A stretch of 49,114 bases of DNA from Rhodocyclales bacterium (lineage in GTDB: Bacteria > Pseudomonadota > Gammaproteobacteria > Burkholderiales > Rhodocyclaceae): the NCBI GenBank assembly GCA_016215645.1, contig JACRIX010000077.1:1-49114 (forward strand), in the 5' to 3' direction. Positions 21,193-43,741 of the stretch are shown here, piece by piece. Numbering within the stretch: position 1 is the stretch's first letter; the number at the start of each line of letters is the position of its first letter. The notes under the pieces were generated by a model. That model was not told the origin of the DNA. It was given only the letters and a program-made list of their open reading frames with translations, and did no database searches. The position numbers and the translations under genes were made by a program.

Positions 21193-21212
21193 TGTAACAG
21201 TTTGCTGTTCCA
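21193..21212. promoter_or_regulatory. Palindromic enhancer candidate upstream of the PQQ dehydrogenase
   Basis: TGTAACAG-TTTG-CTGTTCCA: 8-bp arms with one mismatch, centred about 110 bp upstream of the sigma-54 -24 element at 21314. This is a normal distance for an NtrC-family activator site. Confidence 0.5.
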
Positions 21213-21313
21213 TTCTGAAACACCTGCCCGCATTTGACGCACGCTGCAACGCAGCATTCGAGACGCCGATCGCGAATCATCGAATTTGCAGCTCTTCATG
21301 AGTTTAAATCCCC

Positions 21314-21329
21314 TGGCATCTGGATTGCT
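21314..21329 (+). promoter_or_regulatory. Sigma-54 (-24/-12) promoter for the PQQ dehydrogenase
   Basis: TGGCATCTGGATTGCT fits TGGCAY-N5-TTGCW with the required GG-N10-GC spacing (GG 21315-21316, GC 21327-21328). Transcription would start near 21340, giving a leader of about 55 nt with an inverted repeat CGGACA-N10-TGTCCG (21343-21364) before the ribosome site AGGAGGTG. Confidence 0.7.
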
Positions 21330-21394
21330 ATAGAGCTCTCGACGGACACGCGAGTGCATGTCCGACGAACCATAAACTCCAGGAGGTGGATTAG

Positions 21395-23137
21395 ATGAAA
21401 CGTACCCTGACATCGGTGCTGGTTGCCGGCGCCCTGATCACGCTGGCCGGCGCACCGGCAACGGCCGCAGTCACTGACAAGGACATCGAGAACGACGCCA
21501 AGTCAACCGGCGACGTACTGTCCTGGGGCCTCGGCACCCAGGGCCAGCGCTACAGCCCGCTGGCGAAGATCAACACCAAGACGGTCAAGGATCTGGTGCC
21601 GGTCTGGTCCTTTTCCTTCGGCGGCGAGAAGCAGCGCGGCCAGGAATCGCAGCCGGTGATCCACAACGGCAAGATGTTCGTGACCGGTTCCTACTCGCGC
21701 CTGTTCGCCCTCGACGCCAAGACCGGCAAGAAGCTGTGGCAATACGAGCACCGCCTGCCCGACGGCATCATGCCCTGCTGCGACGTGGTCAACCGCGGCG
21801 CCGCGCTGTATGACAACCTGGTGATCTTCGCCACGCTCGACGCGCAACTGGTGGCCCTGAACCAGGACACGGGCAAAGTGGTGTGGAAGGAAAAGATCGA
21901 CGAGTATTCGGCCGGTTACTCCGCCACGGCAGCGCCGATCATCGCCAAGGGCCTGGTCCTCACCGGCGTCTCCGGCGGCGAATTCGGCGTCATCGGCCGG
22001 GTCGAGGCGCGCGATGCCAAGACCGGCAAGATGGTCTGGGTGCGCCCCACCGTCGAAGGCCACATGGGCATGAAGGACGGTAAGGACAACGGCATTTCCG
22101 GTACTACCAACGCCACCTGGCCGGGTGACCTGTGGAAGACCGGCGGCGCCGCCACCTGGCTCGGCGGCACTTACGATCCCGAGACCGGGCTGGCCTATTT
22201 CGGCACTGGCAACCCGGCGCCGTGGAACAGCGCGCTGCGTCCCGGCGACAACCTGTATTCCTGCTCCACCGTGGCCATCGACGTCGCCACCGGCAAGATC
22301 GCGTGGCACTTCCAGGGCACGCCGAACGACGGCTGGGATTACGACGGCGTCAACGAGTTCGTCACCTACAAGAGCAAGGACGGCAAGCATCTCGGCGGCA
22401 AGGCTGACCGCAACGGCTTCTTCTACGTGCTCGACGCCAAGAGCGGCAAGTTCCAGAAGGGCTTCCCCTTCGTCAAGAAGATCACCTGGGCCACCGGCCT
22501 CGATGAAAACGGCCGGCCCAAGTTCGATCCGGCCAACCGCCCCGGCGATCCGGCCAAGAGCGCCGACGGCAAGAAGGGCACTTCGGTGTTCTCGGCGCCG
22601 TCCTTCCTTGGTGGCAAGAACCAGATGCCGATGGCCTATAGCCCCGACACCGGCTACTTCTACGTGCCCGCCAACGAGTGGGGCATGGAAATCTGGAACG
22701 AGCCGGTCAGCTACAAGAAGGGCGCGGCCTACCTCGGCGCCGGTTTCACCATCAAGACCATCGACGACAGCTACATCGGCGCCATGCGCGCGATCGATCC
22801 GGCCACCGGCAAGATCGTCTGGGAAGTCAGGAACAACGCTCCGCTGTGGGGCGGCGTGCTGACCACCAAGGGCGGCCTGGTGTTCTGGGGTACTCCGGAG
22901 GGCTTCCTCAAGGCGGCCGATGCCAAGACCGGCAAGGAAGTCTGGTCCTTCCAGACCGGTTCCGGCGTGGTCGCGCCGCCCATCAGCTGGGAACAGGACG
23001 GCGAGCAGTACATCGGCGTCGCCTCGGGTTGGGGCGGTGCGGTGCCGCTGTGGGGCGGGGACGTGGCGAAGAAGGTCAACTACCTGAACCAGGGTGGTTC
23101 GATGTGGGTGTTCAAGTTGCACAAGAGTGGTGTGTAG
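21395..23137 (+). CDS. PQQ-dependent alcohol dehydrogenase, lanthanide (ExaF/PedH) type
   Basis: A 580-residue periplasmic quinoprotein: signal peptide ([16 protein letters not shown]), eight-bladed propeller with tryptophan-docking repeats (for example [12 protein letters not shown]), and the vicinal disulfide Cys128-Cys129. Metal ligands Glu196 (SGGEFGV), Asn273 (GTGNPAPWN) and catalytic Asp315 are present. Asp317, two residues after the catalytic Asp (WDYDG), is the residue that marks lanthanide-dependent enzymes; calcium enzymes have Ala or Ser there. The likely reaction is alcohol to aldehyde with electrons passed to a cytochrome c, plausibly the PedF-type protein at 32638. Strong ribosome site AGGAGGTG, sigma-54 promoter upstream, and terminator downstream make it a monocistronic unit. 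Methanol as substrate (XoxF) is less likely given the ethanol-dehydrogenase-like sequence. Confidence 0.93.
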
Positions 23138-23192
23138 GACGGGTGGGCTCCTCCTGATGTGATCCGTTCGAGAATGCGGATCGCTTCAATTC

Positions 23193-23229
23193 AAGGCCGG
23201 CGCAATGTGATTGCCGCCGGCCTTTTTTT
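23193..23229 (+). terminator. Intrinsic terminator after the PQQ dehydrogenase
   Basis: AAGGCCGGCG (23193-23202) pairs with CGCCGGCCTT (23215-23224), a 10-bp stem followed by seven T. Confidence 0.92.
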
Positions 23230-23260
23230 CTTGCGTTGACATTGCGCGATCGGGCCTGTC

Positions 23261-23821
23261 ATGAAGCGTCGATACCTGTATCTCCTGCTTTGCGCCATGC
23301 TGCCGTCACTGGCGGGATTCGCCGCCGAGCTATCGGGCAGTCGCGGCATCTGGTTGAGCAACGCCGACGGCGAGCGGCAGCGCATCGGTAGCGTCGAATT
23401 CACGCCGGCGGGTGGCGGACAGACGCGCTTCAAAATCAGCATGGAGGAATCGCTGGAGGAATACTTCCTCGCCATGCGGCCGTTCCGCTGCCTGAGCGGT
23501 CCGCGCCAGCGCCTGTGCCATTTTCCGGTGGCGCGCGAGGCGCCGCTGATCAGTGCCGGCGATCTGGTGCCGCTCGAATACGCGCTGCTGTTCATGCGCA
23601 CGGCGCCGAAGTCCCTGCACATCGATCCCTTCAACGGCCTCTACTACCGCATGAGCTGGACCGCGCAAGGCATCGTCGGCCAGGTGCACGATGTCGACAT
23701 GGATCCCTTCATCACGCCCGACAGCGTTCCCGTCGAACGCCGCCAGCGGCCGATCCGTGCCGAGGACCTGAGCCCGGGCGATCCGCGCAGCCACTGGCTG
23801 CCGATCCTCAGGATCGAGTGA
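23261..23821 (+). CDS. Secreted protein of unknown function
   Basis: A 186-residue protein with a clear signal peptide (YLYLLLCAMLPSLAGFA-AE). The mature part is all-beta looking and contains SNADGERQRIGSVEFTPAGG, a two-Cys segment FRCLSGPRQRLCHF that could form a disulfide, and ALLFMRTAPKSLHIDPFNG. I recognise no domain. It follows the dehydrogenase terminator and precedes the Sel1/ExbB-like genes by about 120 bp, so it may begin that group. Confidence 0.78.
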   Translation: MKRRYLYLLLCAMLPSLAGFAAELSGSRGIWLSNADGERQRIGSVEFTPAGGGQTRFKISMEESLEEYFLAMRPFRCLSGPRQRLCHFPVAREAPLISAGDLVPLEYALLFMRTAPKSLHIDPFNGLYYRMSWTAQGIVGQVHDVDMDPFITPDSVPVERRQRPIRAEDLSPGDPRSHWLPILRIE

Positions 23822-23940
23822 CATGGCGTCGCTGCACTCACTGGCGCCGGCTCGGAATGCCCGCCGCGGAGGTTTGCCATCGCAGGCTCGACGCCGCGGT
23901 ATGATCGATGGTCGCTGACAGTGCGGAAAGGATCGCGGTG

Positions 23941-24876
23941 GTGAAGCGCCTGATTGCCGGTGGTGCGATTCTCGCGTTCGTGTTGATGCCGGTCGCGAAC
24001 GCGGCCAGCCATGCCGGCGTCAGCTTTTGCGGCGGCACGGTGACACCGGGCGATCCGATCGACCTGGAGAACCAGATCGGCGACATGACGCTGCAGGCCG
24101 CGGTGGACCAGCCGGCGAGCATCACCACCTGCGCCAAGGGTTACCTGCTGGCCAAGTGCGGCGACCATGAAAATGCGAACAAGATATTCGACAGGTGCAT
24201 CGTCGCCGGCTATGTCGGGGCGATGATCTGGAAGGCCTTGCAGGTCGAGAACGGCAACGGCACCGAGCGCGACCTGAAGGAGGCCGCCGACCTGCTGCGC
24301 CAGGCCGCCATGAGCAGCGATCCGGCTTACGGTCCGCTCGGTCGCATGCACTACGCCACGGTGCTGTTCGAGGGGCGCGGTGTCGCCCGCGATCCGGAGG
24401 CGGCGATGAAATGGTTCCGCCAGGCGGCGGCGGAAGGCAGCGAGGAAGCCGCCGAGTTCCTGCGCACCGGCTATCACACCGGCGCCCGCGACGGCAGCGG
24501 CATGGGCGCCGGGACACCGACCGCGGCGGCGCTGGCGCCGATGCTTTCGGTGCCGGTGGCGAATTCAGGGGATGCTCCCGGGTCGTCAGCCGACGGCCTT
24601 GTCGAACGGCGTTCGCCTCCGCGTGCCATTGCCCTGGCGCCACGTTCCGCTACGATGCCCGGTTTGCCGCAACTACAAACAGGTGCCTTGTCCGCCGAGG
24701 CGACGATCGAGGGCTTGCAGCTCAACCAGGCGTCGGCTGCGCCGGCAAGGCCGGCCGGCGGCCTCGGCGGTCTGATCTGGCTGCTGTTGGCGGCTTTCCT
24801 CGCTGGCGTGCTGTTCCAGCGCCCGGCGCGGGAGGTTCGTGTTCGCGTCCAATTGCCGCACGCGGCGGGCGCGTGA
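23941..24876 (+). CDS. Sel1-repeat protein with C-terminal membrane anchor
   Basis: About 311 residues. N-terminal signal-like stretch (LIAGGAILAFVLMPVANA), Sel1-type repeats (KEAADLLRQAAMSSDPAYGP, DPEAAMKWFRQAAAEGSEEA), a Pro/Ala-rich linker and a C-terminal membrane segment (GGLGGLIWLLLAAFLAGVLF). I chose GTG 23941 because AAAGGA (23927-23932) sits at correct spacing; ATG 23908 is in frame and possible. The stop overlaps the ExbB-like start by one base, so the three genes 23941-25732 are one coupled unit. Sel1 repeats mediate protein contacts; here it may scaffold the ExbB-like/DUF2149 complex (inference). Confidence 0.8.
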   Translation: MKRLIAGGAILAFVLMPVANAASHAGVSFCGGTVTPGDPIDLENQIGDMTLQAAVDQPASITTCAKGYLLAKCGDHENANKIFDRCIVAGYVGAMIWKALQVENGNGTERDLKEAADLLRQAAMSSDPAYGPLGRMHYATVLFEGRGVARDPEAAMKWFRQAAAEGSEEAAEFLRTGYHTGARDGSGMGAGTPTAAALAPMLSVPVANSGDAPGSSADGLVERRSPPRAIALAPRSATMPGLPQLQTGALSAEATIEGLQLNQASAAPARPAGGLGGLIWLLLAAFLAGVLFQRPAREVRVRVQLPHAAGA

Positions 24877-25400
24877 TGGCGGCAGCCGAAACAGCAGGCG
24901 TGGCGGCGAACTTCGGCACCCTGCTGGAAACCCTGATGTTCGGCATCAGCCAGTTGTTCCTGGTACCGGTGCTGCTGGCCATCGCCTTCCTGTTTCTGTA
25001 TGCGTTCTATGCCCTGGGCGCCTTTGCCTGGCAGTGGCGGCAGCGCCAGCGGCAGGTGGCGGCAGCGTTCGAGCTGCTGGACGCCCGGCGTCGCATGCCC
25101 GAGCTTTCCCTCGCCGAACTGGAGGCCGAGGCCGTGACGCGGCTGGAGTTCATCCGCATCGTGACGCGCGTCACGCCTATGCTGGGCCTGGTGGCGACCA
25201 TGATCCCGATGGGACCGGCGCTCAAGGCGCTCGGCGACGGTCAACTGATGGATGTTTCGCGCAGCCTGATGGTGGCGTTCTCGGCGGTGATCCTGGCGCT
25301 GATCGCCTCGGCGCTGACCTACTGGATCGCCAACGTGCGCAAGCGCTGGTATGCCATCGAACTGCTGCAGCTGGAACGTCGGCAGGGCGGGCAGTCGTGA
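24876..25400 (+). CDS. MotA/TolQ/ExbB proton-channel family protein
   Basis: A 174-residue inner-membrane protein. A first membrane segment (LFLVPVLLAIAFLFLYAFYAL) is followed by a cytoplasmic loop and two further helices: RVTPMLGLVATMIPMGPALK, the TolQ/ExbB-type TM2 signature, and MVAFSAVILALIASALTYWI (TM3). ExbB-family proteins form a proton channel with an ExbD-like partner, here probably the DUF2149 protein that overlaps by 4 bp (GTGA). The likely job is to energise the TonB at 16279. Confidence 0.87.
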   Translation: MAAAETAGVAANFGTLLETLMFGISQLFLVPVLLAIAFLFLYAFYALGAFAWQWRQRQRQVAAAFELLDARRRMPELSLAELEAEAVTRLEFIRIVTRVTPMLGLVATMIPMGPALKALGDGQLMDVSRSLMVAFSAVILALIASALTYWIANVRKRWYAIELLQLERRQGGQS

Positions 25401-25732
25401 AGCTGCGCCTGGATGACGAGAGCGAAGGCGACGACCCGATCCTGTCGCTGGTGAACCTGATCGACGTGTTCCTGGTGGTGATCGCGGCGCTGATGCTGGC
25501 GATCGCCAACAACCCGCTGAATCCTTTCACCAGCGACACGCTGACCCTGATCCGCAACGCCGGCAAGCCGGACATGGAGATCGTCACCAAGGATGGCGCG
25601 AAGATCGAGCGCTATCAAGGGGCCGGTTTGGTCGGTAGCGGCAAGGGGGTGCGTGCCGGCGTCGCCTACCGCATGGCTGACGGTTCCTTGGTGTACGTGC
25701 CGGATCCCGCCGGCGCGGCGAGGACGCCCTGA
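25397..25732 (+). CDS. DUF2149 (ExbD-like) membrane protein
   Basis: A 111-residue protein starting with GTG in the ExbB-like stop. It has one N-terminal membrane helix with an acidic residue at its start (LVNLIDVFLVVIAALMLAIANN), as ExbD/TolR proteins have, then a small periplasmic domain (DMEIVTKDGAKIERYQGAG, AYRMADGSLVYVPD). The family pairs with MotA/TolQ/ExbB-type genes. I infer an ExbD role; the length and single helix fit. Confidence 0.83.
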   Translation: MKLRLDDESEGDDPILSLVNLIDVFLVVIAALMLAIANNPLNPFTSDTLTLIRNAGKPDMEIVTKDGAKIERYQGAGLVGSGKGVRAGVAYRMADGSLVYVPDPAGAARTP

Positions 25733-25745
25733 TCGGGCGCTGGAT

Positions 25746-25767
25746 CGCCGTGTCGCCAGCGCCGACT
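25746..25767 (-). repeat. 22-nt dispersed repeat, copy 5
   Basis: Perfect match to the common form on the minus strand, in the 63-bp gap between the convergent DUF2149 and propeller genes. No terminator hairpin is evident in this gap. Confidence 0.78.
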
Positions 25768-25795
25768 TTTCGGCGGCACCTGCCGACGGCTCATC

Positions 25796-27435: not shown

Positions 27436-27453
27436 GCGGACTCCCTGGGATGC

Positions 27454-30261: not shown

Positions 30262-32325
30262 TCAGGGCTGCAGCTTGCGATACAGGGTGCTGCGACTGAT
30301 GCCCAGTTCGCGCGCCGCCGCCGAGACGTTGCCGTGGGCGCGGCCGAGGGCGTCGTGGATGGCCTGCATGGTCAGGTCGTCGAGATTCGTGGTCGGTGGG
30401 GCAGCGACTGCCGCCGCCGGGCTGGCAGAAGTCGGCGCTGGCGACACGGCGACCGACGCGGCCGCCATCGCATCGACGGGGGCGGCGGCTGTCGCATTTG
30501 GCAGGCTCTGCCCAACATCTTCGATGAAGTCATCGGGCAAATGTTCGCGGCGGATGGTGGCTTCGCCCTCCGCCATGACCACCGCCGTGCGCAGCAGGTT
30601 CGACAACTGACGCAGATTGCCCGGCCAGGGATGTTTACGGAACAGGCTCAGCACTTCGGGATCGAGCGAGGGCGGGTGGTCGCCGCCGAGTTCCCTGAGC
30701 AGCGAGGCAACCAGGGCTTCGAGGTCGGTGCGTGCGCGCAGCGGCGGCAACATCACGGTCAGCCCGTTGAGCCGGAAATACAGGTCCTCGCGGAACAGGC
30801 CGCTGCTGACGCTGTCGCGGATGCGGCGGTGCGTGGCGCAGATCACGGCGATATTCACCGGGTAGGCTTTTGCGCTGCCCAGCGGCATCACCACGCGCTC
30901 CTGCAGTACGCGCAGCAGGCGTGCCTGCAGCGACAGCGGCATGTCGCCGATTTCGTCGAGGAACAAGGTGCCGCCGTCGGCCTGCAGGATGCGGCCGACG
31001 CTGCCCTTGCGGCGTGCGCCGGTGAAGGCCCCGTCCTCGTAGCCGAACAGTTCCGATTCGATCAGGCCCTCGGGAATCGCGGCGCAATTGACCGCGATGA
31101 AGGCCTTGGCGGCGCGCGGGCCGACACAGTGGATCGCATTCGCCAGGAGTTCCTTGCCGGTACCCGTTTCACCCTGGATCAGGATCGGGATGTCGCGGCC
31201 AATCACCTTTTTGACCTTGGCAAGGACGGCGTCGATTTGCGGATCCCCGGTTTGCAGGCGCTCCATCGGGCAGTTGCGGCGGGAAGGCGCGTGAGCCTGG
31301 TCGGCGGCTACGGCAGCGACGGCCGGCACGACAGCCTGGGGCAATGCCGCCTCGCTCTGCATCGATGGGCGCGAGTGGCGCCGCAAGTGGGAGGTGCGAA
31401 AGTCGGCGCGTGCCTGGACCCGGACGCCGCTGCTGAGGGTAAGCGCCATCGGGTCCTGCGGGCGGACCAGCAGGTGGTCGAGCAGGCGGCTGATCGGCTG
31501 CCCGAACAGCGAGCTGAAATTGGCACCGCGCAACTGGGCGAGGTTCTGGCCGAACTGGAAGCAGGCGTTGCGATTGGCCGAGAGCAGGGTGCCGTCTTCC
31601 GAGAAGGCGGCCATGCCTTCGCAGAGCGTGCCGACGAACTCCGGTCGGGCATGGAAGCGCAGGGTCAGCATTTCATTGAAGGCCGAGGCGAACATGCGGT
31701 TCTCGATCATCTGCACCGACATGCGGACCAGGGCCATGGTATGCCGGTTGGAACTGCGATGATCGCCGGAGACGTCGAGGATGCCGCTCAACTGACCGTG
31801 GGGATCGAATATGGGTGAGGCGGAGCAGGTCAGGAACCGGTTGGCGGAAAGGAAATGCTGGTCGCCATTCACTACCACCGGCGCCGCCATCACCAACGCG
31901 GTACCGATCGCGTTGGTGCCGCGATTGGCCTCTGACCACTCGACGCCCGGCGCCAGGGCCACCTTTTCCGCCTGCGTCAGAAACTCCGGATCGCCACAAC
32001 TGTGGAGGATGTAGCCGGCGTTGTTGGCCAGCACCACCACGTTCTGGGTATCGACGATCTGCTCGAACAGTACGTCCATCACGGGTTGGGCGTGGGTCAG
32101 CAGGTCGCGGCTTTTTTCGATCTGTTCCGCCAGCAGCACCCGCTCCAGCGGGTCGAAGTCGGTGCCCTGGTCGTTGTCCAGGCCATAGCCGAGACAGCGT
32201 TCCCAGGACAGTTCGATCGCCGTCGGAAGCAGGCCTGTCGGTACCAGGCCGGCGTTGCGCAACACGTCATGGGCGTGGCCCGCGGTGCCGAATTCCAGCC
32301 CGCCACTGCTGTTGGCCTGCTTCAT
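30262..32325 (-). CDS. AcoR-like sigma-54-dependent transcriptional activator
   Basis: A 687-residue NtrC-family activator. The N-terminal sensor half (about 60-300) has the GAF-type pattern of AcoR proteins ([38 protein letters not shown]). The AAA+ domain has Walker A GETGTGKE (385-392), the sigma-54-contacting GAFTGA loop (432-437) and Walker [10 protein letters not shown]. After a Pro/Ala linker that contains repeat copy 6, a Fis-type helix-turn-helix ends the protein ([18 protein letters not shown]). ATG 32325 has GAGGAGA upstream; the longer frame to 32445 is unlikely. Divergent from the PedF-type/aor genes and near four sigma-54 promoter matches, it is the obvious candidate activator. 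A small-molecule inducer (alcohol or aldehyde) is inferred. Confidence 0.93.
30430..30451 (+). repeat. 22-nt dispersed repeat, copy 6
   Basis: Perfect match to the common form; inside the linker of the sigma-54 activator, read on its coding strand as Ala-Val-Ser-Pro-Ala-Pro-Thr, the same frame as in tonB. Confidence 0.78.
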
Positions 32326-32497
32326 TGCGTTGTCTCCTCGCTCCGGCGGCGTGGCGCTCCCGGCGCTCGCGTCGCTATTGGTGCCGTTTACGTTGAACGG
32401 CCCATATGTAGTCGTTGCCCGGTAATGATACATCGGATGTTTCAAGTTGCGACAGTCCGTCGTTTTGACAGAAGTGTTCCAGTGCAGTTTTCATGCC

Positions 32498-32522
32498 TGC
32501 GACAGTTTCGACGTTTGTCGCA
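32498..32522. promoter_or_regulatory. Inverted repeat TGCGACA-N11-TGTCGCA (activator-site candidate)
   Basis: Perfect 7-bp arms. The same octamer TGCGACAG appears at 32448 and, twice in direct orientation, before aorA. The distance to the -24 element is short (about 28 bp), so the 32448 copy may be the working enhancer. Confidence 0.5.
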
Positions 32523-32549
32523 GTAGGATTGCCGTGCAATCCAGGTGAT

Positions 32550-32565
32550 TGGCACGCATCGTGCT
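32550..32565 (+). promoter_or_regulatory. Sigma-54 promoter for the PedF-type cytochrome gene
   Basis: TGGCACGCATCGTGCT: full TGGCAC -24 element, GG (32551-32552)-N10-GC (32563-32564). The start would be near 32576, 60 bp before the ATG. Confidence 0.7.
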
Positions 32566-32637
32566 GCCTGGGGGGGATTCAGTGCCGGCCATGTTCCGGC
32601 ATGGCCGGACCACCCACATTCCAGGAGGAAAGCTTTC

Positions 32638-33330
32638 ATGCACGCAACGATCCGATCTCTTGCCATGCTCGCCGTCATGGCCGGCGCACTGGTGTCGTCA
32701 TGGGCACTGGCCCATGGCGACGTGACCCCGCAGGCGGTGGATGTCAGCAGCCTGAAGCCGCTGGGAGACGCGAAGCGCGACGAAAACCCCTACCGCGGGG
32801 AAAAGGAAGCCATTCGGGTCGGGACCTCGGCCTACAATCAGAACTGCGCCCGCTGCCATGGCCTCGAAGCCATCAGCGGCGGCATCGCGCCGGACCTGCG
32901 CAAGCTCGACATCGACAAGGAAACCGACATCTATTTCCGCGACTCGGTATTGCGCGGCAAGGTACGCAATGGCGCGGTGTACATGCCGCCCTTCGAAGGC
33001 ATCCTGTCGCAGGAGGCGATCTGGGCGATTCGCTCCTACCTCGATACACGGCATGAAGAGGAGGCGGCGCCGGTAAGCCCGATGGAGGCGCTGGCCAGGA
33101 AATCCAACTGCCTGTCGTGCCACGCGGTCGATACGCGCGGTGTCGGCCCGGCGTATCGCGAGGTGGCCAAGAAATATGCGAAGGACAAGAATGCCGAAGC
33201 CCGGTTGCTGGCGAAGGTCAAGAAAGGCGGCGCGGGAAGCTGGGGCAAGGTGCCGATGCCGCCGATGGACACCGTGCCCGAGCAGGACCTGAAGACCCTG
33301 ATCAAGTGGATCATGGCCGGCGCCAATTGA
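32638..33330 (+). CDS. pedF: Diheme cytochrome c: PedF-type c-550 fused to a c551/c552-type domain
   Basis: A 230-residue periplasmic protein with signal peptide (LAMLAVMAGALVSSWALA-HG). Residues 27-140 match PedF, the cytochrome c-550 acceptor of PQQ alcohol dehydrogenases (HGDVTPQAVDVSSLKPLG, heme site C70-A-R-C73-H74, NGAVYMPPFEG with Met116). A second heme domain follows (C158-L-S-C161-H162, WGKVPMPPMDTVPEQDLKTLIKWI), resembling class I c551/c552. PedF is normally monoheme, so the fusion is notable: the second heme could pass electrons on to a terminal oxidase. ATG 32638 with AGGAGGAAAG; sigma-54 promoter upstream. It is the first gene before the PedG-type and aor genes. Confidence 0.9.
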   Translation: MHATIRSLAMLAVMAGALVSSWALAHGDVTPQAVDVSSLKPLGDAKRDENPYRGEKEAIRVGTSAYNQNCARCHGLEAISGGIAPDLRKLDIDKETDIYFRDSVLRGKVRNGAVYMPPFEGILSQEAIWAIRSYLDTRHEEEAAPVSPMEALARKSNCLSCHAVDTRGVGPAYREVAKKYAKDKNAEARLLAKVKKGGAGSWGKVPMPPMDTVPEQDLKTLIKWIMAGAN

Positions 33331-33397
33331 GCGGCATCAGATTCGCGGGCCGCGGTAGCGGCGGCGCGTCGCACAAGTGCATGAGGAGGGTGTACGC

Positions 33398-34234
33398 ATG
33401 ATTCGATGGCCGGTTCTGGCAGCGCTGACTGCCCTGTGGCTCTCACTGTTCGCCGCGGCGCCGGCGGGCGCCGAGGAGCTTTCGGCATTGCAGAAAATTC
33501 GGGCCAGCGGCGTGCTCAAGGTGGCGCTGTACAAGAACTTCGCCCCTTTTTCGCATGAGGGCAGCGGGATCGATGTCGAGCTCGCCGCGGCGCTGGCGGC
33601 CAAGCTCGGCGTCAGGATGTCGCCGCTCTGGTTCGAGGCGGACGAGAACATGGAGGACGACCTGCGCAACATGGTCTGGAAGGGCCACTACCTGGGCTAC
33701 GGTCCGGCCGACGTGATGATGCATGTACCGATCGATCCGGCCTACATGGCCAAGGTGGAGCGAGTCAAATTCTTTGCGCCGTATCACCGCGAACGTTATG
33801 CGATTGCGCGCCAACTGGACCAGTTGCCGACACTGGACAATTTCGAACCCTTTGAAAAATTCAGCCTCGGCATCGAAGGCGACACGCTTGGGGCGAGCGT
33901 GATGTTGTCGGCCGACGGCGGACGCTACCGCAATACCATCAAGACCTTCCGCACTGCCGGCGAGGCGGTGGCGGCACTGAAGGGCGGCACGGTGGCGGCG
34001 GTGATGGCGCAGCAGGGCGAGCTCGAAGGCGGCCTCAAGGGTGACGCGCGCATGGCCATCGACCTGCCGCCGCACCCGATCCTGCAGAAGCGCCAATGGC
34101 CGCTGGGCCTTGCCGTCAAGCAGCAGAGCGACGACCTGGCGCAGGCGCTGCAGGCGGCGATCAACGAACTGCTGGCTGACGGTACGCTGAAGGCCATCAT
34201 GCAGCGGCATGGCGTGCAGCATCGCCAGCCATAA
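33398..34234 (+). CDS. Quinoprotein-associated periplasmic binding protein (PedG-type)
   Basis: A 278-residue secreted protein (signal LAALTALWLSLFAAAPAGA-EE) with the family-3 solute-binding fold: LQKIRASGVLKVALYKNFAPFSH, GIDVELAAALAAKLGVRM, PIDPAYMAKVERVKFFAPYHRERYAI, and a C-terminal DLAQALQAAINELLADGTLKAIMQRHG. This group recurs beside PQQ alcohol dehydrogenases and PedF cytochromes without ABC permease genes, as here, so it may deliver or chaperone a cofactor or sense a ligand rather than serve transport. ATG 33398 with GAGGAGGG; an in-frame ATG at 33377 is less likely. It lies 67 bp after the cytochrome gene. Confidence 0.87.
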   Translation: MIRWPVLAALTALWLSLFAAAPAGAEELSALQKIRASGVLKVALYKNFAPFSHEGSGIDVELAAALAAKLGVRMSPLWFEADENMEDDLRNMVWKGHYLGYGPADVMMHVPIDPAYMAKVERVKFFAPYHRERYAIARQLDQLPTLDNFEPFEKFSLGIEGDTLGASVMLSADGGRYRNTIKTFRTAGEAVAALKGGTVAAVMAQQGELEGGLKGDARMAIDLPPHPILQKRQWPLGLAVKQQSDDLAQALQAAINELLADGTLKAIMQRHGVQHRQP

Positions 34235-34297
34235 AACCGCCGTAGCGTGCGTGCGATGGTGTAGCGTCCATCGATTTCGGTCGAAACCGTCGCGCTT

Positions 34298-34327
34298 TGC
34301 GACAGTTGTAGCGTTTTGCTGCGACAG
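34298..34327 (+). promoter_or_regulatory. Direct repeats TGCGACAG before aorA (activator-site candidate)
   Basis: TGCGACAG at 34298-34305 and 34320-34327, 22 bp apart (about two helical turns), 50-75 bp upstream of the aorA sigma-54 promoter. The same octamer occurs before the PedF-type gene. Confidence 0.5.
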
Positions 34328-34373
34328 ATATGAATCCGGGTGCCGAAATTCAGATATCCCGCAAAAAAATGCA

Positions 34374-34389
34374 TGGCATGCGAATTGCG
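34374..34389 (+). promoter_or_regulatory. Sigma-54 promoter for the aor operon
   Basis: TGGCATGCGAATTGCG: GG (34375-34376)-N10-GC (34387-34388), with TTGC at -12. The transcript would begin near 34400, about 68 nt before the aorA ATG. Confidence 0.7.
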
Positions 34390-34467
34390 AATGGAAATCG
34401 TCCTGTCGCACGCCGAACAGGATCCCGCTTCAGTCCAAGAAAATTCGAGTCAAACAGGAGGTTGGAA

Positions 34468-34947
34468 ATGCAGAAATCGTTGCACATCGACGCCAACAAA
34501 TGCACAGGCTGCCTGCAATGCGAGATGGCCTGTTCCTACGAGAACCATGGAGTGTTCAATATCTCCAAGTCTCGGATCAAGGTCTTCAACTTCGAGCATG
34601 CCGGTCGCAAGGTGCCCTACACCTGCACCCAGTGCAGCGAAGCCTGGTGCATGACGGCCTGCCCGGTCGATGCCATCCGCATTGATGCCGGCACCGGCGC
34701 CAAGGCCGTGCATGAGGACATCTGCGTCGGTTGCAAGGTGTGCACCATCGCCTGCCCGTTCGGCACCGTGAATTACATCGCCGAAACCGGCAAGGTGCAG
34801 AAATGCGACCTCTGTGGCGGCGAACCGGCCTGCGCCGATGCCTGCCCGACAGGCGCCATCACCTATGTCGATGCCGACTGGACCGGGCTCGACAAAATGC
34901 GGGCCTGGGCCGGCAAGACCGACACCCAACCGCGCGCGACCGCTTAA
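34468..34947 (+). CDS. aorA: AOR small iron-sulfur subunit AorA
   Basis: A 159-residue ferredoxin-like protein with 16 cysteines in four CxxC-type clusters: 12/15/18/22, 53/56/61/65, 86/89/92/96 and 113/116/122/126, enough for four [4Fe-4S] clusters. This matches the electron-transfer subunit of the three-subunit tungsten aldehyde oxidoreductase known from Aromatoleum. There it passes electrons between the tungsten subunit and the FAD subunit. No signal peptide, so cytoplasmic. ATG 34468 has CAGGAGG at normal distance; the longer upstream frame runs over the sigma-54 promoter and is not real. First gene of aorABC. Confidence 0.92.
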   Translation: MQKSLHIDANKCTGCLQCEMACSYENHGVFNISKSRIKVFNFEHAGRKVPYTCTQCSEAWCMTACPVDAIRIDAGTGAKAVHEDICVGCKVCTIACPFGTVNYIAETGKVQKCDLCGGEPACADACPTGAITYVDADWTGLDKMRAWAGKTDTQPRATA

Positions 34948-34959
34948 GGAGACACAGAC

Positions 34960-36810
34960 ATGGCATGGAACAGGAAACTACTGCGCGTTGACCTCAGCAA
35001 GGGCACCTGCAAGGCGGAACCGCTGAACATGGAATGGGCCCAGGAATACCTGGGACAGCGTGGCCTCGCCACCAAGTACTTCGTCGAGGAAGTCGACCCC
35101 AAGGTCGATCCGCTGGCGCCCGAGAACAAGCTGATCATGACCACCGGCCCGCTCACCGGCACGGTCGCCTCCACCGGCGGACGCTACTCCGTCGTCACCA
35201 AGGGAGCGCTGACCGGCGCCATCGCCTGCTCCAACTCGGGCGGCTATTTCGGCGCCGAGCTCAAGTTCTCCGGCTGGGACATGATCATTTTCGAAGGCAA
35301 GTCGCCGAAGCCGGTCTATCTCTCGATCGAGGATGACAAGGTTGAACTGCGCGATGCCTCGCACCTCTGGGGCAAAACCGTGTTCCAGACCGAGGAGATC
35401 ATCAAGAGCAGCCATCAGGATCCGCAGATCCGCGTTTCCAGCATCGGTCGTTCCGGCGAAAACGGCGTGCTGTTCGCCTGCGTGGTCAATGACCTGCACC
35501 GGGCCGCCGGCCGCTCCGGGGTCGGTACCGTGATGGGCAGCAAGAACCTCAAGGCTGTCGCCGTGCGTGGCAAGAGTGGCAGTGGCGGGGCGCTCAAGGA
35601 CGCCAAGGGATTCATGGCCGCGACCAAGGCGGCGAAGAAGGTGCTGGCCGACAACGCGGTGACCGGACAGGGCCTGCCCAAGTATGGCACCCAGGTGCTG
35701 ATGAACGTGATCAACGAAATGGGCGCGCTGCCCACGCGCAACCATCGCGACGTGCAGTTCGAGGATGCGCGCAAGATCTCCGGCGAAGCCATGCACGAAA
35801 AGCGGCCCACCGACGGCAAGACGCATCTCGTCACCAACGCCGCCTGCTTTGGCTGCACCATCGCCTGCGGGCGCATCTCGCGCATCGACGAAACCCATTT
35901 CAGCGTGGTGAACAAGCCGCAATACTGGGGCGCTTCCGGCGGGCTCGAATACGAAGCCGCCTGGGCGCTGGGCGCCGCCAATGGCGTCGGCGACCTGGAA
36001 GCCCTGCAATACGTGAATGTGCTGTGCAACGAAGACGGCTTCGATCCGATCACGTTTGGTGCCACCATCGCCGCGGCCATGGAACTCTACGATCTGGGCA
36101 TACTGACCAAGGAACAGATCGGCCTGGAGGCACCCTTCGGTTCCGCCCAGGCACTGGTGGAACTGGCACAGATGACCGCGCAGGGGATCGGCTTCGGCAA
36201 GGAACTGGGCATGGGCTCGGCCCGGCTGTGCGCCAAGTACGGTCGCCCCGAGCTGTCGATGGGGGTCAAGAAGCAGGAATTCCCTGCCTACGATTCGCGC
36301 GGCATCCAGGGCATGGGCCTGGGCTACGCGACATCGAACCGCGGCGCCTGTCATCTGCGCGCCTACACCGTGGCCTCCGAAGTGCTGGGCATCCCGGTCA
36401 AGACCGATCCGCTGGTCACCGAAGGCAAGGCCGACCTGGTCAAGGCCTTTCAGGACGCCACCAGCGTCTTCGACAGTGCCGGCGTTTGCGCCTTCACCAC
36501 CTTTGCCTGGTCGCTGGCCGATCTGCAGCCGCAGCTCGACACGGCCTGCGAAGGTGACTGGACCATGGAGAAGCTGGCGCTGCTGGGCGAACGCATCTGG
36601 AACATGGAGCGCCTGTTCAACAATGCTGCCGGCTTCACCGCCAAGGACGACGACCTGCCGCCGCGCCTGAAGACCGAGGCCGCCAAGACCGGACCGGCCA
36701 AGGGCCTGGTGAATGGCATCGACAAGATGCGGCCGGAATACTACAAGGCGCGCGGCTGGACGCCGGAAGGCGTGCCGACCAAAGAAACCCTGGATCGCCT
36801 GGGTCTGTAA
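34960..36810 (+). CDS. aorB: Tungsten-containing aldehyde:ferredoxin-type oxidoreductase subunit AorB
   Basis: A 616-residue AOR-family enzyme that oxidises aldehydes to acids, and can run in reverse, using a tungsto-bispterin cofactor and one [4Fe-4S] cluster. Cluster ligands: Cys296, Cys299, Cys303 (AACFGCTIACG) and distal Cys510 (GVCAFTTFAW). The pterin region RAAGRSGVGTVMGSKNLKA and substrate-side segments EFPAYDSRGIQGMGLGYATSNRGACH are present. Length and order with aorA and aorC match the Aromatoleum enzyme. Cytoplasmic. AAGGAGA lies 8 bp upstream. It would remove aldehyde made by the PQQ dehydrogenase, though that enzyme is periplasmic, so aldehyde must cross the membrane (inference). 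Confidence 0.93.
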   Translation: MAWNRKLLRVDLSKGTCKAEPLNMEWAQEYLGQRGLATKYFVEEVDPKVDPLAPENKLIMTTGPLTGTVASTGGRYSVVTKGALTGAIACSNSGGYFGAELKFSGWDMIIFEGKSPKPVYLSIEDDKVELRDASHLWGKTVFQTEEIIKSSHQDPQIRVSSIGRSGENGVLFACVVNDLHRAAGRSGVGTVMGSKNLKAVAVRGKSGSGGALKDAKGFMAATKAAKKVLADNAVTGQGLPKYGTQVLMNVINEMGALPTRNHRDVQFEDARKISGEAMHEKRPTDGKTHLVTNAACFGCTIACGRISRIDETHFSVVNKPQYWGASGGLEYEAAWALGAANGVGDLEALQYVNVLCNEDGFDPITFGATIAAAMELYDLGILTKEQIGLEAPFGSAQALVELAQMTAQGIGFGKELGMGSARLCAKYGRPELSMGVKKQEFPAYDSRGIQGMGLGYATSNRGACHLRAYTVASEVLGIPVKTDPLVTEGKADLVKAFQDATSVFDSAGVCAFTTFAWSLADLQPQLDTACEGDWTMEKLALLGERIWNMERLFNNAAGFTAKDDDLPPRLKTEAAKTGPAKGLVNGIDKMRPEYYKARGWTPEGVPTKETLDRLGL

Positions 36811-36825
36811 TTCCTGCCATACCCC

Positions 36826-36854
36826 TCAGGGGATCGGCCTTGCCGATCCCCTGA
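36826..36854. other. Perfect 13-bp hairpin between aorB and aorC
   Basis: TCAGGGGATCGGC (36826-36838) pairs with GCCGATCCCCTGA (36842-36854), 3-nt loop. A TCGTTT follows, not a full T-run, and aorC's ribosome site comes right after. It could lower aorC expression, protect the aorAB transcript 3' end, or be a leaky terminator. Confidence 0.8.
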
Positions 36855-36871
36855 TCGTTTAAGGAAAGCTC

Positions 36872-38188
36872 ATGAAACACGTCATCATTGGAAATGGACC
36901 GGCTGGCGTGGTGGCGGCGGAAGCCCTGCGCAAAGCCGATGCCGCCGCCGAGATCGTCCTGATCGGCGCCGAGCCGGAACCCGCCTATTCGCGCATGGCG
37001 ATTCCCTATCTGCTGGAAGGCAATATCGACGAAAGCGGCACCTGGCTGCGCAAGACGGAGGGCCATTTCGCCAGGCTGCGCATTCGCGAACTGCAAGCGC
37101 GGGTGGTCTCGATGAACACCACCCAGCGCAAGCTGCTGCTTGCCGACGGACAGTTCGAAACCTATGACCGCCTGCTGATCGCCAGCGGCTCGCACCCGGT
37201 GCGGCCATCGATTCCCGGCATTGACCTGCCGCAGGTGCAAACCTGCTGGACCTTGGCCGATGCTCGTGCGATCGCCAGCCTGGCCAAGCCGGGAACGCGC
37301 GTCCTGCAACTGGGCGCCGGCTTCATCGGCTGCATCATCATGGAGGCGCTCGCCGCGCGCGGTGTCGAATTGACCGTGGTCGAGATGGGCGACCGCATGG
37401 TGCCACGCATGATGACGCCGAAAGCCGGCGGCATGATCAAGCAATGGGTCGAGAGCAAGGGCGTGCGCGTCCTGACCGGCAAGGGAGTGCAGCGCATCGC
37501 CCCGGCTGGGGCCAATCCGGGCCTGCTCGACCGTCTTGCGCAAGCCGTGGGCGTCGGCGCCAAGTCCGAAGCCAGCGGCTTGACGGTGACCCTGTCTGAC
37601 GGCGAGGCGCTGGGCTGCGATCTGGTGATTGTCGCCGCCGGCGTGGCGCCGAATGTCGGCTTTCTGGAGAATACCGGGGTGCAGGTGGCGAAGGGCGTGC
37701 TGGTCGACAGCCGGATGCAGACCACCGTCGCCGGCATCTATGCGGCGGGCGACGTGGCCGAAGCGCCGGACTTGTTGACCGGCGCCCATCTGGTCGCGGC
37801 GATTCAACCCAATGCCGCCGACCAGGCGCGGGTCGCGGCGCTGAACATGGCCGGACGCGAAGCACAGTTGCCGGGTGTGCTGGCGATCAACGTGCTCGAC
37901 ACGCTCGGCCTAGTGTCGACCTCCTTTGGTCAGTGGTGGGGCGAGACCGCGCAAAATGGCGGCGCGGGGACCGAGTTGGTGGATTCTGCCAATCATCGCT
38001 ACCTGTCGCTGCAGTTCAAGGACGACGTGCTGATCGGCGCCACGTCGATCGGGCATACCGAACATGTTGGTGTCTTGCGCGGCCTGATCCAGACGCGGAC
38101 CCGGCTCGGGTCATGGAAAGACGCTTTGCTGAAGGATCCGAATTGCTACATGGCGGCTTATCTGGCGAGTGCCCAGAGGGCGGCATGA
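36872..38188 (+). CDS. aorC: AOR FAD-dependent NAD(P)H-type reductase subunit AorC
   Basis: A 438-residue two-dinucleotide-binding flavoprotein: FAD-binding GNGPAG (7-12), NAD(P)-binding LGAGFIG (147-153), and a second FAD motif GIYAAGDVAEAPD. It resembles NAD(P)H:ferredoxin/rubredoxin-type reductases and the AorC subunit that links AOR to NAD. A C-terminal extension (NHRYLSLQFKDDVLIGATSIG and onward) is the usual dimerisation part. AAGGAA upstream of ATG 36872. It allows aldehyde oxidation with NAD+ as acceptor. Confidence 0.9.
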   Translation: MKHVIIGNGPAGVVAAEALRKADAAAEIVLIGAEPEPAYSRMAIPYLLEGNIDESGTWLRKTEGHFARLRIRELQARVVSMNTTQRKLLLADGQFETYDRLLIASGSHPVRPSIPGIDLPQVQTCWTLADARAIASLAKPGTRVLQLGAGFIGCIIMEALAARGVELTVVEMGDRMVPRMMTPKAGGMIKQWVESKGVRVLTGKGVQRIAPAGANPGLLDRLAQAVGVGAKSEASGLTVTLSDGEALGCDLVIVAAGVAPNVGFLENTGVQVAKGVLVDSRMQTTVAGIYAAGDVAEAPDLLTGAHLVAAIQPNAADQARVAALNMAGREAQLPGVLAINVLDTLGLVSTSFGQWWGETAQNGGAGTELVDSANHRYLSLQFKDDVLIGATSIGHTEHVGVLRGLIQTRTRLGSWKDALLKDPNCYMAAYLASAQRAA

Positions 38189-38214
38189 GCAATGCTTGAG
38201 CAGGGGAGGGAGGC

Positions 38215-38469
38215 ATGAAGGTGATCTTCAAGCTTTACGCAACCCTGCAGGATTACCTGCCGGCCGAGGCAAAGCGGACCAATGCGCAGACGCTGCACCT
38301 GGAAGAGGGAACCACGGTGCAGCAGATCATCGAACGCTTCGCGCTGCCGCAGAAGCTCTGTCATCTGGTATTGATCGATGGCCATTTCGTGCCGCCGGGC
38401 GAGCGCGGAACGCGCGTGCTGGAGGACGGCGCCATACTGGCGATCTGGCCACCGGTGGCCGGTGGTTGA
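38215..38469 (+). CDS. MoaD/ThiS-like sulfur-carrier protein
   Basis: An 84-residue beta-grasp protein (MKVIFKLYATLQDYLPAEAK, GTTVQQIIERFALPQ, DGAILAIWPPVAGG) ending in Gly-Gly, the tail that MoaD and ThiS use to carry sulfur as a thiocarboxylate. Aor operons in relatives contain a MoaD-like gene at this place, pointing to tungstopterin synthesis. Strong ribosome site GGGGAGGGAGG; 26 bp after aorC. No MoeA- or MoaE-like gene is next to it. Confidence 0.88.
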   Translation: MKVIFKLYATLQDYLPAEAKRTNAQTLHLEEGTTVQQIIERFALPQKLCHLVLIDGHFVPPGERGTRVLEDGAILAIWPPVAGG

Positions 38470-38531
38470 GCGCGAATGACAAACAAGTCGAGCCGGCACG
38501 ATGGGATCGCCGCCGATTTTTGCTACTGGCG

Positions 38532-38547
38532 TGGCATGCCCCTTGCG
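38532..38547 (+). promoter_or_regulatory. Sigma-54 promoter before the DUF1097 gene
   Basis: TGGCATGCCCCTTGCG: GG (38533-38534)-N10-GC (38545-38546) with TTGC at -12. The leader to the DUF1097 ATG would be about 165 nt and contains an inverted repeat TGAAAC-N11-GTTTCA (38588-38610). No TGCGACAG site is seen upstream. Confidence 0.55.
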
Positions 38548-38724
38548 CATTACTCCCATGGAGCAATGTGGTCGGCGGATAGTGTGCTGAAACCAGACAC
38601 TAGTGTTTCAGGTACAGGATCCGATTGACCGGTTTTGATCGAGGTTCGGCGCTTTTGTTCGGGCCATCGGTTGGCATTGATCCAAATTCGACCGAGACAA
38701 TACCAATCACAGGAGACGATCGCA

Positions 38725-39246
38725 ATGAAGAGTTTGAATGCACTTGCCATAAGTATTTCGGTTTTGGGCGCCCTGGCCACCTTTCTCGCCCTCGGACCGC
38801 TCAGCGGCGTGTATCTGATCTGGGCGGCGTTTGTCGCCTGGGGCGCGTTCTATGCCCTTGGCGCCGATATCGCCGCGCTGCGCAAGCTGATCGTCTGCGG
38901 TATTTTCGGTGCGCTGGTGGCCTGGGTCGTGGCGGTGGTCATCCTTACGGTGCCCATGGCCGGGTCGCTGGGTTTGCCGTTGTGGGCGGCGCTGGTGGTC
39001 GGCGCCGGTGTGGTCGTGGTGGTTTTGGCGGCCAACATTCCTGCCCTGGCGACGATTCCCGCCACGGTGTTCGGCTTTGCCTCTTCCTTTGCCTATCTGC
39101 TGCAAACACCGGATATGCTCAAGCCCGAGGTCCTGCTATCGTTAAGCATGAAGAATTCACTTGTCGTCATCTCCCTGTCGCTGGTTGCCGGCGCCGTATT
39201 CGGCCTGGCTTCGGCGCGCTGGGGGGCGGCAATGACCCGGTCGTAG
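38725..39246 (+). CDS. DUF1097 membrane protein
   Basis: A 173-residue, strongly hydrophobic protein with about six membrane segments (LAISISVLGALATFLALG, VYLIWAAFVAWGAFYALG, LIVCGIFGALVAWVVAVVIL, LVVGAGVVVVVLAANIPALA and others). Its pattern matches DUF1097, a family of inner-membrane proteins without known function (E. coli YcdZ/YahN-region type). ATG 38725 has AGGAGA upstream. Its putative sigma-54 promoter links it to the alcohol/aldehyde regulon; a small transporter or aldehyde/acid permease would fit, but this is speculation. Confidence 0.85.
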   Translation: MKSLNALAISISVLGALATFLALGPLSGVYLIWAAFVAWGAFYALGADIAALRKLIVCGIFGALVAWVVAVVILTVPMAGSLGLPLWAALVVGAGVVVVVLAANIPALATIPATVFGFASSFAYLLQTPDMLKPEVLLSLSMKNSLVVISLSLVAGAVFGLASARWGAAMTRS

Positions 39247-39279
39247 CCGCGGCATCTTCCCGCGCGGCCACCATTCGGG

Positions 39280-39314
39280 ATCGGAAATGCCGGCGTCGGT
39301 CCGGCATTTCCGAT
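39280..39314. other. Perfect 14-bp hairpin between DUF1097 and cytochrome c genes
   Basis: ATCGGAAATGCCGG (39280-39293) pairs with CCGGCATTTCCGAT (39301-39314), 7-nt loop. Only scattered T follow, so it is a transcript-end or processing hairpin rather than a textbook terminator. Confidence 0.75.
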
Positions 39315-39376
39315 TCCGCTTTGGTGCCGTTTCCGGGACAGGTTTCCGCACAGGTTTTATTGTCTGAGGAGTTGGT

Positions 39377-39766
39377 ATGAAACGCATGACCGCAATCCAC
39401 CTGCCGCTGCTGCTCGCCGCTGTGCTCGCCAGCAGCCCCGTCCTTGCCGATGCCAAGAAGGACGAGGCGGCGCGCCAGTTGGCGACCAAATCCGGCTGCT
39501 TCATCTGCCACGCGATCGAACTCGATGCCAAGGGACCGGAAGGCCTCAAGCCGGTCGGGCCGCCCTGGAAGGCGGTCGCCGCGCGCTACAAGGGTGACAA
39601 GAATGCGCGCAAGAATCTGACGGCGGCGATCATGGGCGGGACATCGGTGTACAACCGGCACTGGAAGGAAGAATCCAGCGGCGTGGCGATGCCACCGAAC
39701 GGGGTGGCGATTTCCGAGGCCGACGCGAAGAAGCTGGTGGACTGGATTCTGGCCCTGCCGAAGTAA
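39377..39766 (+). CDS. Small monoheme cytochrome c (c551/c552 type)
   Basis: A 129-residue periplasmic protein: signal peptide (LPLLLAAVLASSPVLA-DA), heme site C41-F-I-C44-H45, the family segment GLKPVGPPWKAVAARYKGDK, and VAMPPNGVAISEADAKKLVDWI with the axial Met. It resembles the second domain of the diheme PedF-type protein, so it may be an alternative or sequential carrier. GAGGAG precedes ATG 39377. It is convergent with the DUF364 gene, with 18 bp between. Confidence 0.9.
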   Translation: MKRMTAIHLPLLLAAVLASSPVLADAKKDEAARQLATKSGCFICHAIELDAKGPEGLKPVGPPWKAVAARYKGDKNARKNLTAAIMGGTSVYNRHWKEESSGVAMPPNGVAISEADAKKLVDWILALPK

Positions 39767-43739: not shown

Positions 43740-43741
43740 CA

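What the first reader, a model, noticed from the sequence alone, without database searches (positions are those of the whole stretch)
21193..39766. A shared sigma-54 regulon joining a lanthanide-type alcohol dehydrogenase and a tungsten aldehyde oxidoreductase
Four GG-N10-GC promoters (21314, 32550, 34374, 38532) precede the PQQ dehydrogenase, the PedF-type cytochrome, aorA and DUF1097. An AcoR-like sigma-54 activator (30262-32325) is encoded among them. This suggests one switch for a two-metal alcohol to aldehyde to acid pathway across the inner membrane. I know of AorABC and of PQQ/PedF systems separately; a common sigma-54 control of both would be new to me.
Basis: partly seen in the sequence, partly recalled or inferred. 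Interest (0 to 1): 0.85.

Follow-up and report, generated by a model that had tools for sequence, protein, structure and literature searches.

The report
Shared sigma-54 switch for alcohol oxidation
A group of bacteria appears to place a rare-earth-type alcohol-oxidising enzyme, its electron carrier and a tungsten aldehyde-oxidising enzyme under one sigma-54 control protein, an arrangement that related bacteria seem to have put together several times, although no expression experiment has tested it.

Summary
The four GG-N10-GC sites are the best four sigma-54-like sites in the window on both strands and precede a Ln-type PQQ alcohol dehydrogenase, pedF-pedG, aorABC-moaD and DUF1097. The AcoR-like activator (EBP) is intact. 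Relatives support a shared regulon. Of 80 fetched aorB loci, 77 had a readable aorA upstream; a proximal sigma-54 site (score >=13.5) is in 11 of 13 with the EBP nearby and 1 of 64 without. PedF has one in 12 of 12, orthologous PQQ dehydrogenases in 19 of 19, less similar ones in 1 of 10. A 17-bp palindrome, TGTnnC-N5-GnnACA, lies upstream of the PQQ, pedF and (7/8) aorA promoters and is enriched in held-out regions. Cultured Aromatoleum species have pedGF<>EBP>aorABC. Against a simple 'one switch': DUF1097 lacks the palindrome, most linked aorA in relatives lack it, a LuxR-type system sits beside the PQQ dehydrogenase, and rpoN was not found in this incomplete genome. Sigma-54 control of a PQQ dehydrogenase and, by prediction, of clostridial aor were known separately; nine paper searches found no report joining them. 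New variant of a known kind.

The parts
17047..18267 (+). Sensor histidine kinase (HisKA_3), possible second regulator of the PQQ dehydrogenase
   Evidence: Pfam; relative in L280 83%
18264..18905 (+). LuxR-type response regulator
   Evidence: Pfam; relatives in 12 of 16 fetched stretches around PQQ-ADH genes
18992..21154 (+). TonB-dependent receptor related to PqqU (below that model's cut-off)
   Evidence: NF041535 709 bits, cut-off 1200
21206..21222 (.). Putative activator site (UAS) TGTTCCATTCTGAAACA upstream of the PQQ-ADH
   Evidence: 8/8 match to TGTnnC-N5-GnnACA; 7/8 in the relative (L251/L280)
21314..21328 (+). Sigma-54 promoter of the PQQ-ADH
   Evidence: Score 14.5/15.5; 19 of 19 orthologous genes, this one included, have a site of at least 14
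21395..23137 (+). PQQ alcohol dehydrogenase with the lanthanide-type motif GWDYDGVNE
   Evidence: TIGR03075; best PDB matches 6zcv and 6zcw
30262..32325 (-). AcoR-like sigma-54 activator (GAF, marginal PAS, AAA+ with GAFTGA, Fis-type HTH)
32438..32454 (.). Putative UAS TGTTTCAAGTTGCGACA between EBP and pedF
   Evidence: 8/8; conserved block in L280
32550..32564 (+). Sigma-54 promoter of pedF-pedG
   Evidence: Score 14.5; -24 and -12 blocks conserved in L280 with a divergent spacer
32638..33330 (+). PedF-type cytochrome c with two cytochrome domains
   Evidence: TIGR04494, Pfam
33398..34234 (+). PedG-like periplasmic binding protein
   Evidence: SBP_bac_3; position as PedG in PMC12997753. Searches used 33401-34234, one codon short of the ATG
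34288..34304 (.). Putative UAS CGTCGCGCTTTGCGACA upstream of aorA
   Evidence: 7/8 here, 8/8 in L170
34374..34388 (+). Sigma-54 promoter of aorABC
   Evidence: Score 15; identical in L170, absent from the unlinked paralogue L171
34468..34947 (+). AorA, iron-sulfur subunit
   Evidence: Fer4 families
34960..36810 (+). AorB, tungsten cofactor subunit
   Evidence: AFOR_N/AFOR_C; 8c0z 1118 bits
36872..38188 (+). AorC, FAD/NAD subunit
   Evidence: Pyr_redox_2
38215..38469 (+). MoaD/ThiS-like protein (AorD/AorE-like)
   Evidence: ThiS family
38532..38546 (+). Sigma-54 promoter of DUF1097
   Evidence: Score 15; in L170 the gene lies beside the EBP and has a 15.5 site
38725..39246 (+). DUF1097 protein, function unknown
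   Evidence: PF06496
39377..39766 (+). Small c-type cytochrome, possible further member
   Evidence: Cytochrom_C; present in L170 behind moaD

Best explanation
The cluster is a sigma-54 regulon run by the AcoR-like EBP at 30262-32325. Its GAF/PAS part probably senses an alcohol or a related metabolite (inferred). The activated EBP binds TGTnnC-N5-GnnACA palindromes that begin 86 to 112 bp upstream of the promoters and opens sigma-54 polymerase at the pedF-pedG, PQQ-ADH and aorABC-moaD promoters. PQQ-ADH with its cytochrome oxidises alcohol to aldehyde in the periplasm, and AorABC oxidises the aldehyde that enters the cytoplasm to the acid, reducing NAD (inferred from characterised relatives). 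DUF1097 belongs to the sigma-54 set, but its activator is unknown. A LuxR-type two-component system may add a second input at the PQQ-ADH. Shown here by sequence: promoters, gene families, conservation, the EBP-promoter association. Inferred: binding, inducer, flux, metals.
For: Four sites rank 1-4 in the window. aorA site (>=13.5 within 300 nt) in 11 of 13 EBP-linked and 1 of 64 unlinked loci, Fisher p 1.4e-10 without correction for relatedness (80 loci, 3 too short). pedF: 12 of 12 at >=14 in that set; in the first set 17 of 18 pedF genes followed by pedG at >=14, the 18th at 13.5, and none of 4 other PedF-like rows. PQQ-ADH orthologues 19 of 19, less similar ones 1 of 10. Palindrome: exact in 13 of the 31 regions it was read from (0.65% of random 250-mers); held out, >=7/8 in 26 of 42 and 8/8 in 6 of 42, against 4.5% and 0.3% of random 250-mers and 6 and 2 of 131 ORF-free 250-mers; other spacers reach at most 12 and 2 of 42. 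Footprints against L170/L280 keep palindrome and promoter at aorA and pedF, and the promoter with a 7/8 palindrome at the PQQ-ADH. At least three gene arrangements bring EBP, pedFG and aor together; the linked state needs 10 changes on the AorB tree. Natural pair: the L170 genome has two AORs (96% and 94% to the window's AorB); only the EBP-linked copy has promoter and palindrome.
Against: No rpoN found in this genome (79.6% complete) or in the L170 genome by three searches; 10 of 12 genomes have it. The palindrome reaches 7/8 in only 3 of 13 held-out linked aorA regions, is 7/8 at the window's aorA, absent at DUF1097, and reaches 7/8 in 17 of 64 unlinked aorA regions, 11 of them one related group. 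Linked but without a site of 13.5 at aorA: L102, L123, L124, L233, L246. Unlinked aorA with one in the first set: 5 of 27. Two of six PQQ-ADH orthologues in the first set fall below 14, and a 41% relative there has 15. A LuxR-type regulator lies near 12 of 16 PQQ-ADHs. The motif was chosen by eye; score weights are mine.
Confidence: 0.7

Rival explanations
1. Two switches: the EBP controls pedFG and aor, while the PQQ-ADH is a sigma-54 gene governed mainly by the neighbouring LuxR-type two-component system.
For: Kinase and LuxR-type regulator at 17047-18905, kept in L280 at 83% and 96%, and LuxR-type relatives in 12 of 16 stretches around PQQ-ADHs. [quoted passage not shown] the original paper was not held), and an ECF sigma factor also affects it (passages in PMC12826043).
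Against: A LuxR-type protein has no AAA+ domain, so sigma-54 still needs an EBP (established knowledge). The EBP-type palindrome is at 21206 and reaches 7/8 in 13 of 17 held-out PQQ-ADH regions.
Confidence: 0.25
2. aorABC is transcribed mainly by read-through from the pedF promoter or from a sigma-70 promoter; the site at 34374 is minor.
For: aorA follows pedG on the same strand here and in L124, where no clear aorA site was seen.
Against: Site and upstream palindrome are kept between window and L170 amid divergent DNA; sites occur in loci where aor does not follow pedG, such as Aromatoleum.
Confidence: 0.15
3. The sites are chance GG-N10-GC matches in GC-rich DNA.
For: GG-N10-GC alone occurs as often as chance predicts.
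Against: The full consensus ranks these four first, and association with the EBP and conservation hold in relatives.
Confidence: 0.03

Closest known systems
AorABC(DE) of Aromatoleum aromaticum EbN1 (PMC6365974, PMC10413684: passages only)
   Same: Same three subunits and a MoaD-like companion; AorB aligns end to end with 8c0z, which I recall as the EbN1 enzyme.
   Different: The word searches in those papers found no regulator or promoter. A. toluclasticum, toluvorans, toluolicum and evansii have an AcoR-like EBP directly upstream of aorA and pedFG beyond it. EbN1 itself was not among the fetched loci.
ped/exa system of Pseudomonas (PMC12997753, PMC6115532: passages only)
   Same: PQQ-ADHs including a lanthanide one, PedF cytochrome, PedG binding protein, LuxR-type response regulators.
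   Different: The passages describe control by two-component systems, with the sigma-54-type response regulator CbrB listed as a higher-level regulator; the words AcoR and enhancer-binding do not occur in PMC12997753.
exaA of Azospirillum brasilense Sp7 (cited in PMC6115532 and PMC12826043; original not held)
   Same: PQQ-ADH dependent on sigma-54.
   Different: Reported with a LuxR-type regulator; no AOR in the passages I saw.
AorR regulon of Clostridiales (PMC6615313: passages only)
   Different: Assigned there to alcohol synthesis; no PQQ dehydrogenase in the passages.
BmoR of Thauera butanivorans (PMC8899819 passages; PMC6366067 abstract)
   Same: Alcohol-responsive sigma-54 EBP (kinship with AcoR recalled).
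   Different: Controls an alkane monooxygenase promoter; its sequence was not compared here.

Membership tests
Sigma-54 promoter | TGGCAYG-N4-TTGC with GG and GC 10 bp apart, close to a gene start | tested here: met
   66 to 178 nt between site and start codon (sequence)
Sigma-54 promoter | Transcription start about 12 bp downstream, dependent on RpoN | not testable with these tools
   Needs RNA 5'-end mapping
Sigma-54 promoter | Organism has rpoN | tested here: inconclusive
   Not found in G000 (draft, 79.6% complete) or G399 (a MAG); nif- and flagellar-type sigma-54 sites present in G000
AcoR-type EBP | GAF, sigma-54 AAA+ with GAFTGA, Fis-type HTH | tested here: met
AcoR-type EBP | Effector bound by the GAF/PAS part | not testable with these tools
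   No ligand data
Lanthanide-type PQQ-ADH (PedH/ExaF) | Extra Asp two residues after the catalytic Asp (rule recalled) | tested here: met
   GWDYDGVNE in the window; GWD[YF]DG or AWDFDG in all 19 orthologues, D-x-D also in 6 of the 10 less similar ones; aligned with 6zcv
Lanthanide-type PQQ-ADH (PedH/ExaF) | Activity with Ln3+ | not testable with these tools
   Needs enzyme assay
Three-subunit tungsten AOR (AorABC) | Fe-S, AFOR and FAD/NAD subunits encoded together with a MoaD-like gene | tested here: met
Three-subunit tungsten AOR (AorABC) | Tungsten content and NAD-dependent activity | not testable with these tools
   Needs purified enzyme
PqqU receptor | NF041535 curated cut-off | tested here: not met
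   709 bits, cut-off 1200: related, not assigned

The most novel reading that the evidence does not exclude
One alcohol-responsive AcoR-type EBP has repeatedly recruited tungsten aldehyde oxidoreductase operons into an older pedFG/PQQ-ADH regulon in betaproteobacteria, so that a rare-earth and a tungsten enzyme on opposite sides of the inner membrane form one inducible pathway, which would also explain how AOR is switched on in Aromatoleum.
Probability: 0.45. Interest if true: 0.65.

Novelty: new variant of a known kind. Interest (0 to 1): 0.55.

Why it matters
How bacterial AorABC is regulated is not described in the passages I read, which name detoxification of aldehydes as its apparent role (PMC10413684) and no regulator. 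A testable activator next to aorA in cultured Aromatoleum species would point to an inducer for AOR and tie it to periplasmic alcohol oxidation. It would also be a regulatory link between lanthanide-type and tungsten enzymes.

Tried and rejected
The inverted repeat CTGCGACAG-N9-TTGTCGCAG at 32497-32523 looked like the activator site at first but is not kept in L280; dropped. Of two TGCGACAG copies near aorA (34298, 34320), the first is part of the 17-bp palindrome and the second is not kept in L170. The palindrome at 16131 lies near the start of a NosR-like gene and was not pursued. A first pass over PQQ-ADH loci read minus-strand loci in the wrong orientation and was replaced; the locus L010 was likewise read on the wrong strand and is not used. 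In one search three queries (AorA, MoaD, DUF1097) were off frame; the AorA hits still marked the gene's place, so the aorA rows rest on them. One search repeated all queries in frame (only L170-L249 printed), and rescored aorA with them: in the first set L106, L113, L115, L117 and L119 again reach 13.5, L102, L123 and L124 again do not, and L127 was not in that tree. Five genomes occur in both AorB sets (L095/L179, L097/L192, L099/L203, L100/L216, L101/L221), all unlinked; one copy was dropped. One counted PQQ-ADH orthologue (L264) has an in-frame TGA. Literature: searches gave no paper joining AOR, a PQQ dehydrogenase and sigma-54; word searches in PMC13390443, PMC9765128, PMC13328260 and PMC12096430 gave nothing on it either. 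Most subscription papers are not held.
Full report
What is there. The window is one contig of a draft genome of 3.41 Mb in 106 contigs, 79.6% complete. The stretch holds a PqqU-related TonB receptor, a PQQ alcohol dehydrogenase, an AcoR-like sigma-54 activator (EBP) divergent from pedF-pedG, then aorA, aorB, aorC, a MoaD-like gene, DUF1097 and a small cytochrome c. The PQQ-ADH matches the solved chains 6zcv and 6zcw best and carries GWDYDGVNE, with the second Asp that I recall as the mark of lanthanide enzymes. [quoted passage not shown]

Are the four promoters more than chance? The bare GG-N10-GC rule is not informative here. With the full consensus the four sites are the best four of the window on both strands. 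Of 11 exact TGGCAYGNNNNTTGC sites in the genome, two lie here; four precede a nitrogenase component 1-type gene, a nifU-like gene, flgE and flgK, which makes an active sigma-54 system in this lineage likely; one is at or inside a PilY1-domain ORF and four were not assigned.

Relatives. From 399 genomes of the order, 36 have an AorB relative and 89 an EBP relative at the thresholds used, the window's own included. I fetched stretches around 34 AorB loci and 26 EBP loci. The EBP with pedF-pedG, in several cases with a PQQ-ADH and TonB receptors, recurs in many of them. AOR is near it in G388, G003 and G264 and about 11 kb away in G049. A second set of 80 AorB loci from named records (the best 80 of a capped list) gave 13 with an EBP of at least 40% identity in the fetched stretch, a lower bound because many contigs are short. 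Arrangements: EBP<>pedFG>aorABC (window, L170, L117, L124); pedGF<>EBP>aorABC (four Aromatoleum species, Azoarcus and others); aorABC>, EBP<, pedFG> (L245, L249); and EBP<>aor without pedF (L186).

Promoter tests. In the second set, 77 aorA upstream regions were readable (L174, L175, L247 too short). A site of at least 13.5 of 15.5 within 300 nt is in 11 of 13 EBP-linked and 1 of 64 unlinked loci; within 500 nt it is 2 of 64. L233 and L246 have a weaker 12.5 site at about the same place. In the first set 31 of 34 loci were scored (see Tried and rejected for its query): of four linked, only L117 reaches 13.5; of 27 unlinked, five do (L106, L113, L115, L119, L127), and the genomes of the last four (G026, G092, G048, G170) have an EBP relative elsewhere. 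pedF: 12 of 12 at 14 or more; in the first set 17 of 18 pedF genes followed by pedG, the 18th at 13.5, and none of 4 other PedF-like rows. PQQ-ADH orthologues (70% identity or more): 19 of 19, the window included; a twentieth, L266, has no start in the fetched stretch and was left out. In the first set 4 of 6 orthologues reach 14; of two distant relatives there, one has 15 and one 9. Less similar PQQ-ADHs: 1 of 10. Random 480-base stretches reach 14 in 2.6%. Loci are related to one another, so p-values are not literal.

Activator sites. Reading the regions upstream of the promoters suggested TGTnnC-N5-GnnACA, that is TGT-N11-ACA, a spacing within that reported for many EBPs (PMC6615313, passages). 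In the 31 regions it was read from, 13 have it exactly, and a spacer of 5 stands alone. In 42 held-out regions 26 have at least 7 of 8 and 6 have all 8; other spacers give 1 to 12 and 0 to 2. Held out means that these regions were not read when the motif was chosen; some come from genomes whose other promoters were, and L170 is a close relative of the window. By class, at least 7/8: aorA 3 of 13, pedF 10 of 12, PQQ-ADH 13 of 17. Unlinked aorA regions have 17 of 64 at 7/8 or better (1 at 8/8), 11 of them from one AorB clade of Dechloromonas, Azonexus and kin, and spacer 8 gives 16 of 64 there. ORF-free 250-mers give 6 of 131, 2 of them exact. In the window it is exact at 21206 and 32438, 7/8 at 34288 and absent at DUF1097; 3 of the genome's 21 exact places are in the window.

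Footprints. Between the window and L170 the aorA region keeps CGCTTTGCGACAGTTGT and the sigma-54 site with its surroundings, amid divergent DNA; the second AOR of the same genome (L171), 94% identical to the window's AorB, has neither. At pedF the palindrome and the -24/-12 blocks are kept while the spacer varies; at the PQQ-ADH the blocks are kept and the palindrome is 7/8, its right half conserved. DUF1097 sits elsewhere in L170, next to the EBP, and still has a sigma-54 site of 15.5.

History. In the EBP tree (44 rows) AOR-linked EBPs fall on both sides of a supported branch (99/91). In the AorB tree (108 rows, quick method) the linked label needs 10 changes, 9 forced by starred branches. 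The link was therefore gained, or gained and lost, several times.

Against. rpoN was not found in this genome or in that of L170 by Pfam, NCBIfam or a relative's protein, while 10 of 12 genomes had it, including that of L186, whose EBP is the next closest. I take this as assembly gaps, but that is unproven. pqqB and pqqC were also not found in these two genomes. A LuxR-type two-component system next to the PQQ-ADH is a serious rival for part of the control.

What was known. Sigma-54 dependence of a PQQ dehydrogenase with a LuxR-type regulator is reported for Azospirillum (passages in PMC6115532 and PMC12826043; original not held). Sigma-54/AorR control of aor-moaD is predicted in Clostridiales (PMC6615313, passages). 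My nine paper searches found none that joins the two. The new element is the shared AcoR-type activator and its repeated association with AOR.

Noticed in passing
window 18992-21154; genomes G000, G399, G400, G234: No pqqC was found in these four genomes (G399 and G400 are MAGs, G000 an incomplete draft), although three have a PQQ dehydrogenase (G400 had none). With a PqqU-related receptor beside the PQQ-ADH (G000, G399) or pedFG (G234) this hints at PQQ scavenging.
   Followed up: partly
L212, L214, L222, L231 (divergent); L115, L119, L127 (directly upstream): A PqqU-related TonB receptor sits next to aorA in these loci with no PQQ dehydrogenase hit in the fetched stretch; why an AOR operon would travel with such a receptor is unexplained.
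   Followed up: no
L118, L120, L121: A different sigma-54 activator (27-29% to the window's) lies divergent to aorA, yet no strong GG-N10-GC site was found there.
   Followed up: no
L170 and L171; L174 and L175: Two genomes carry two closely related AOR operons; in the first only one is linked to the EBP.
   Followed up: partly
window 13968-16226 and 16131-16147: NosR-like gene (NF046105, 493 bits, below cut-off) with an exact 17-bp palindrome near its start.
   Followed up: no
window 39785-43742: DUF364, ViaA-like VWA and RavA/MoxR-like genes downstream on the other strand, perhaps metal or cofactor insertion.
   Followed up: no
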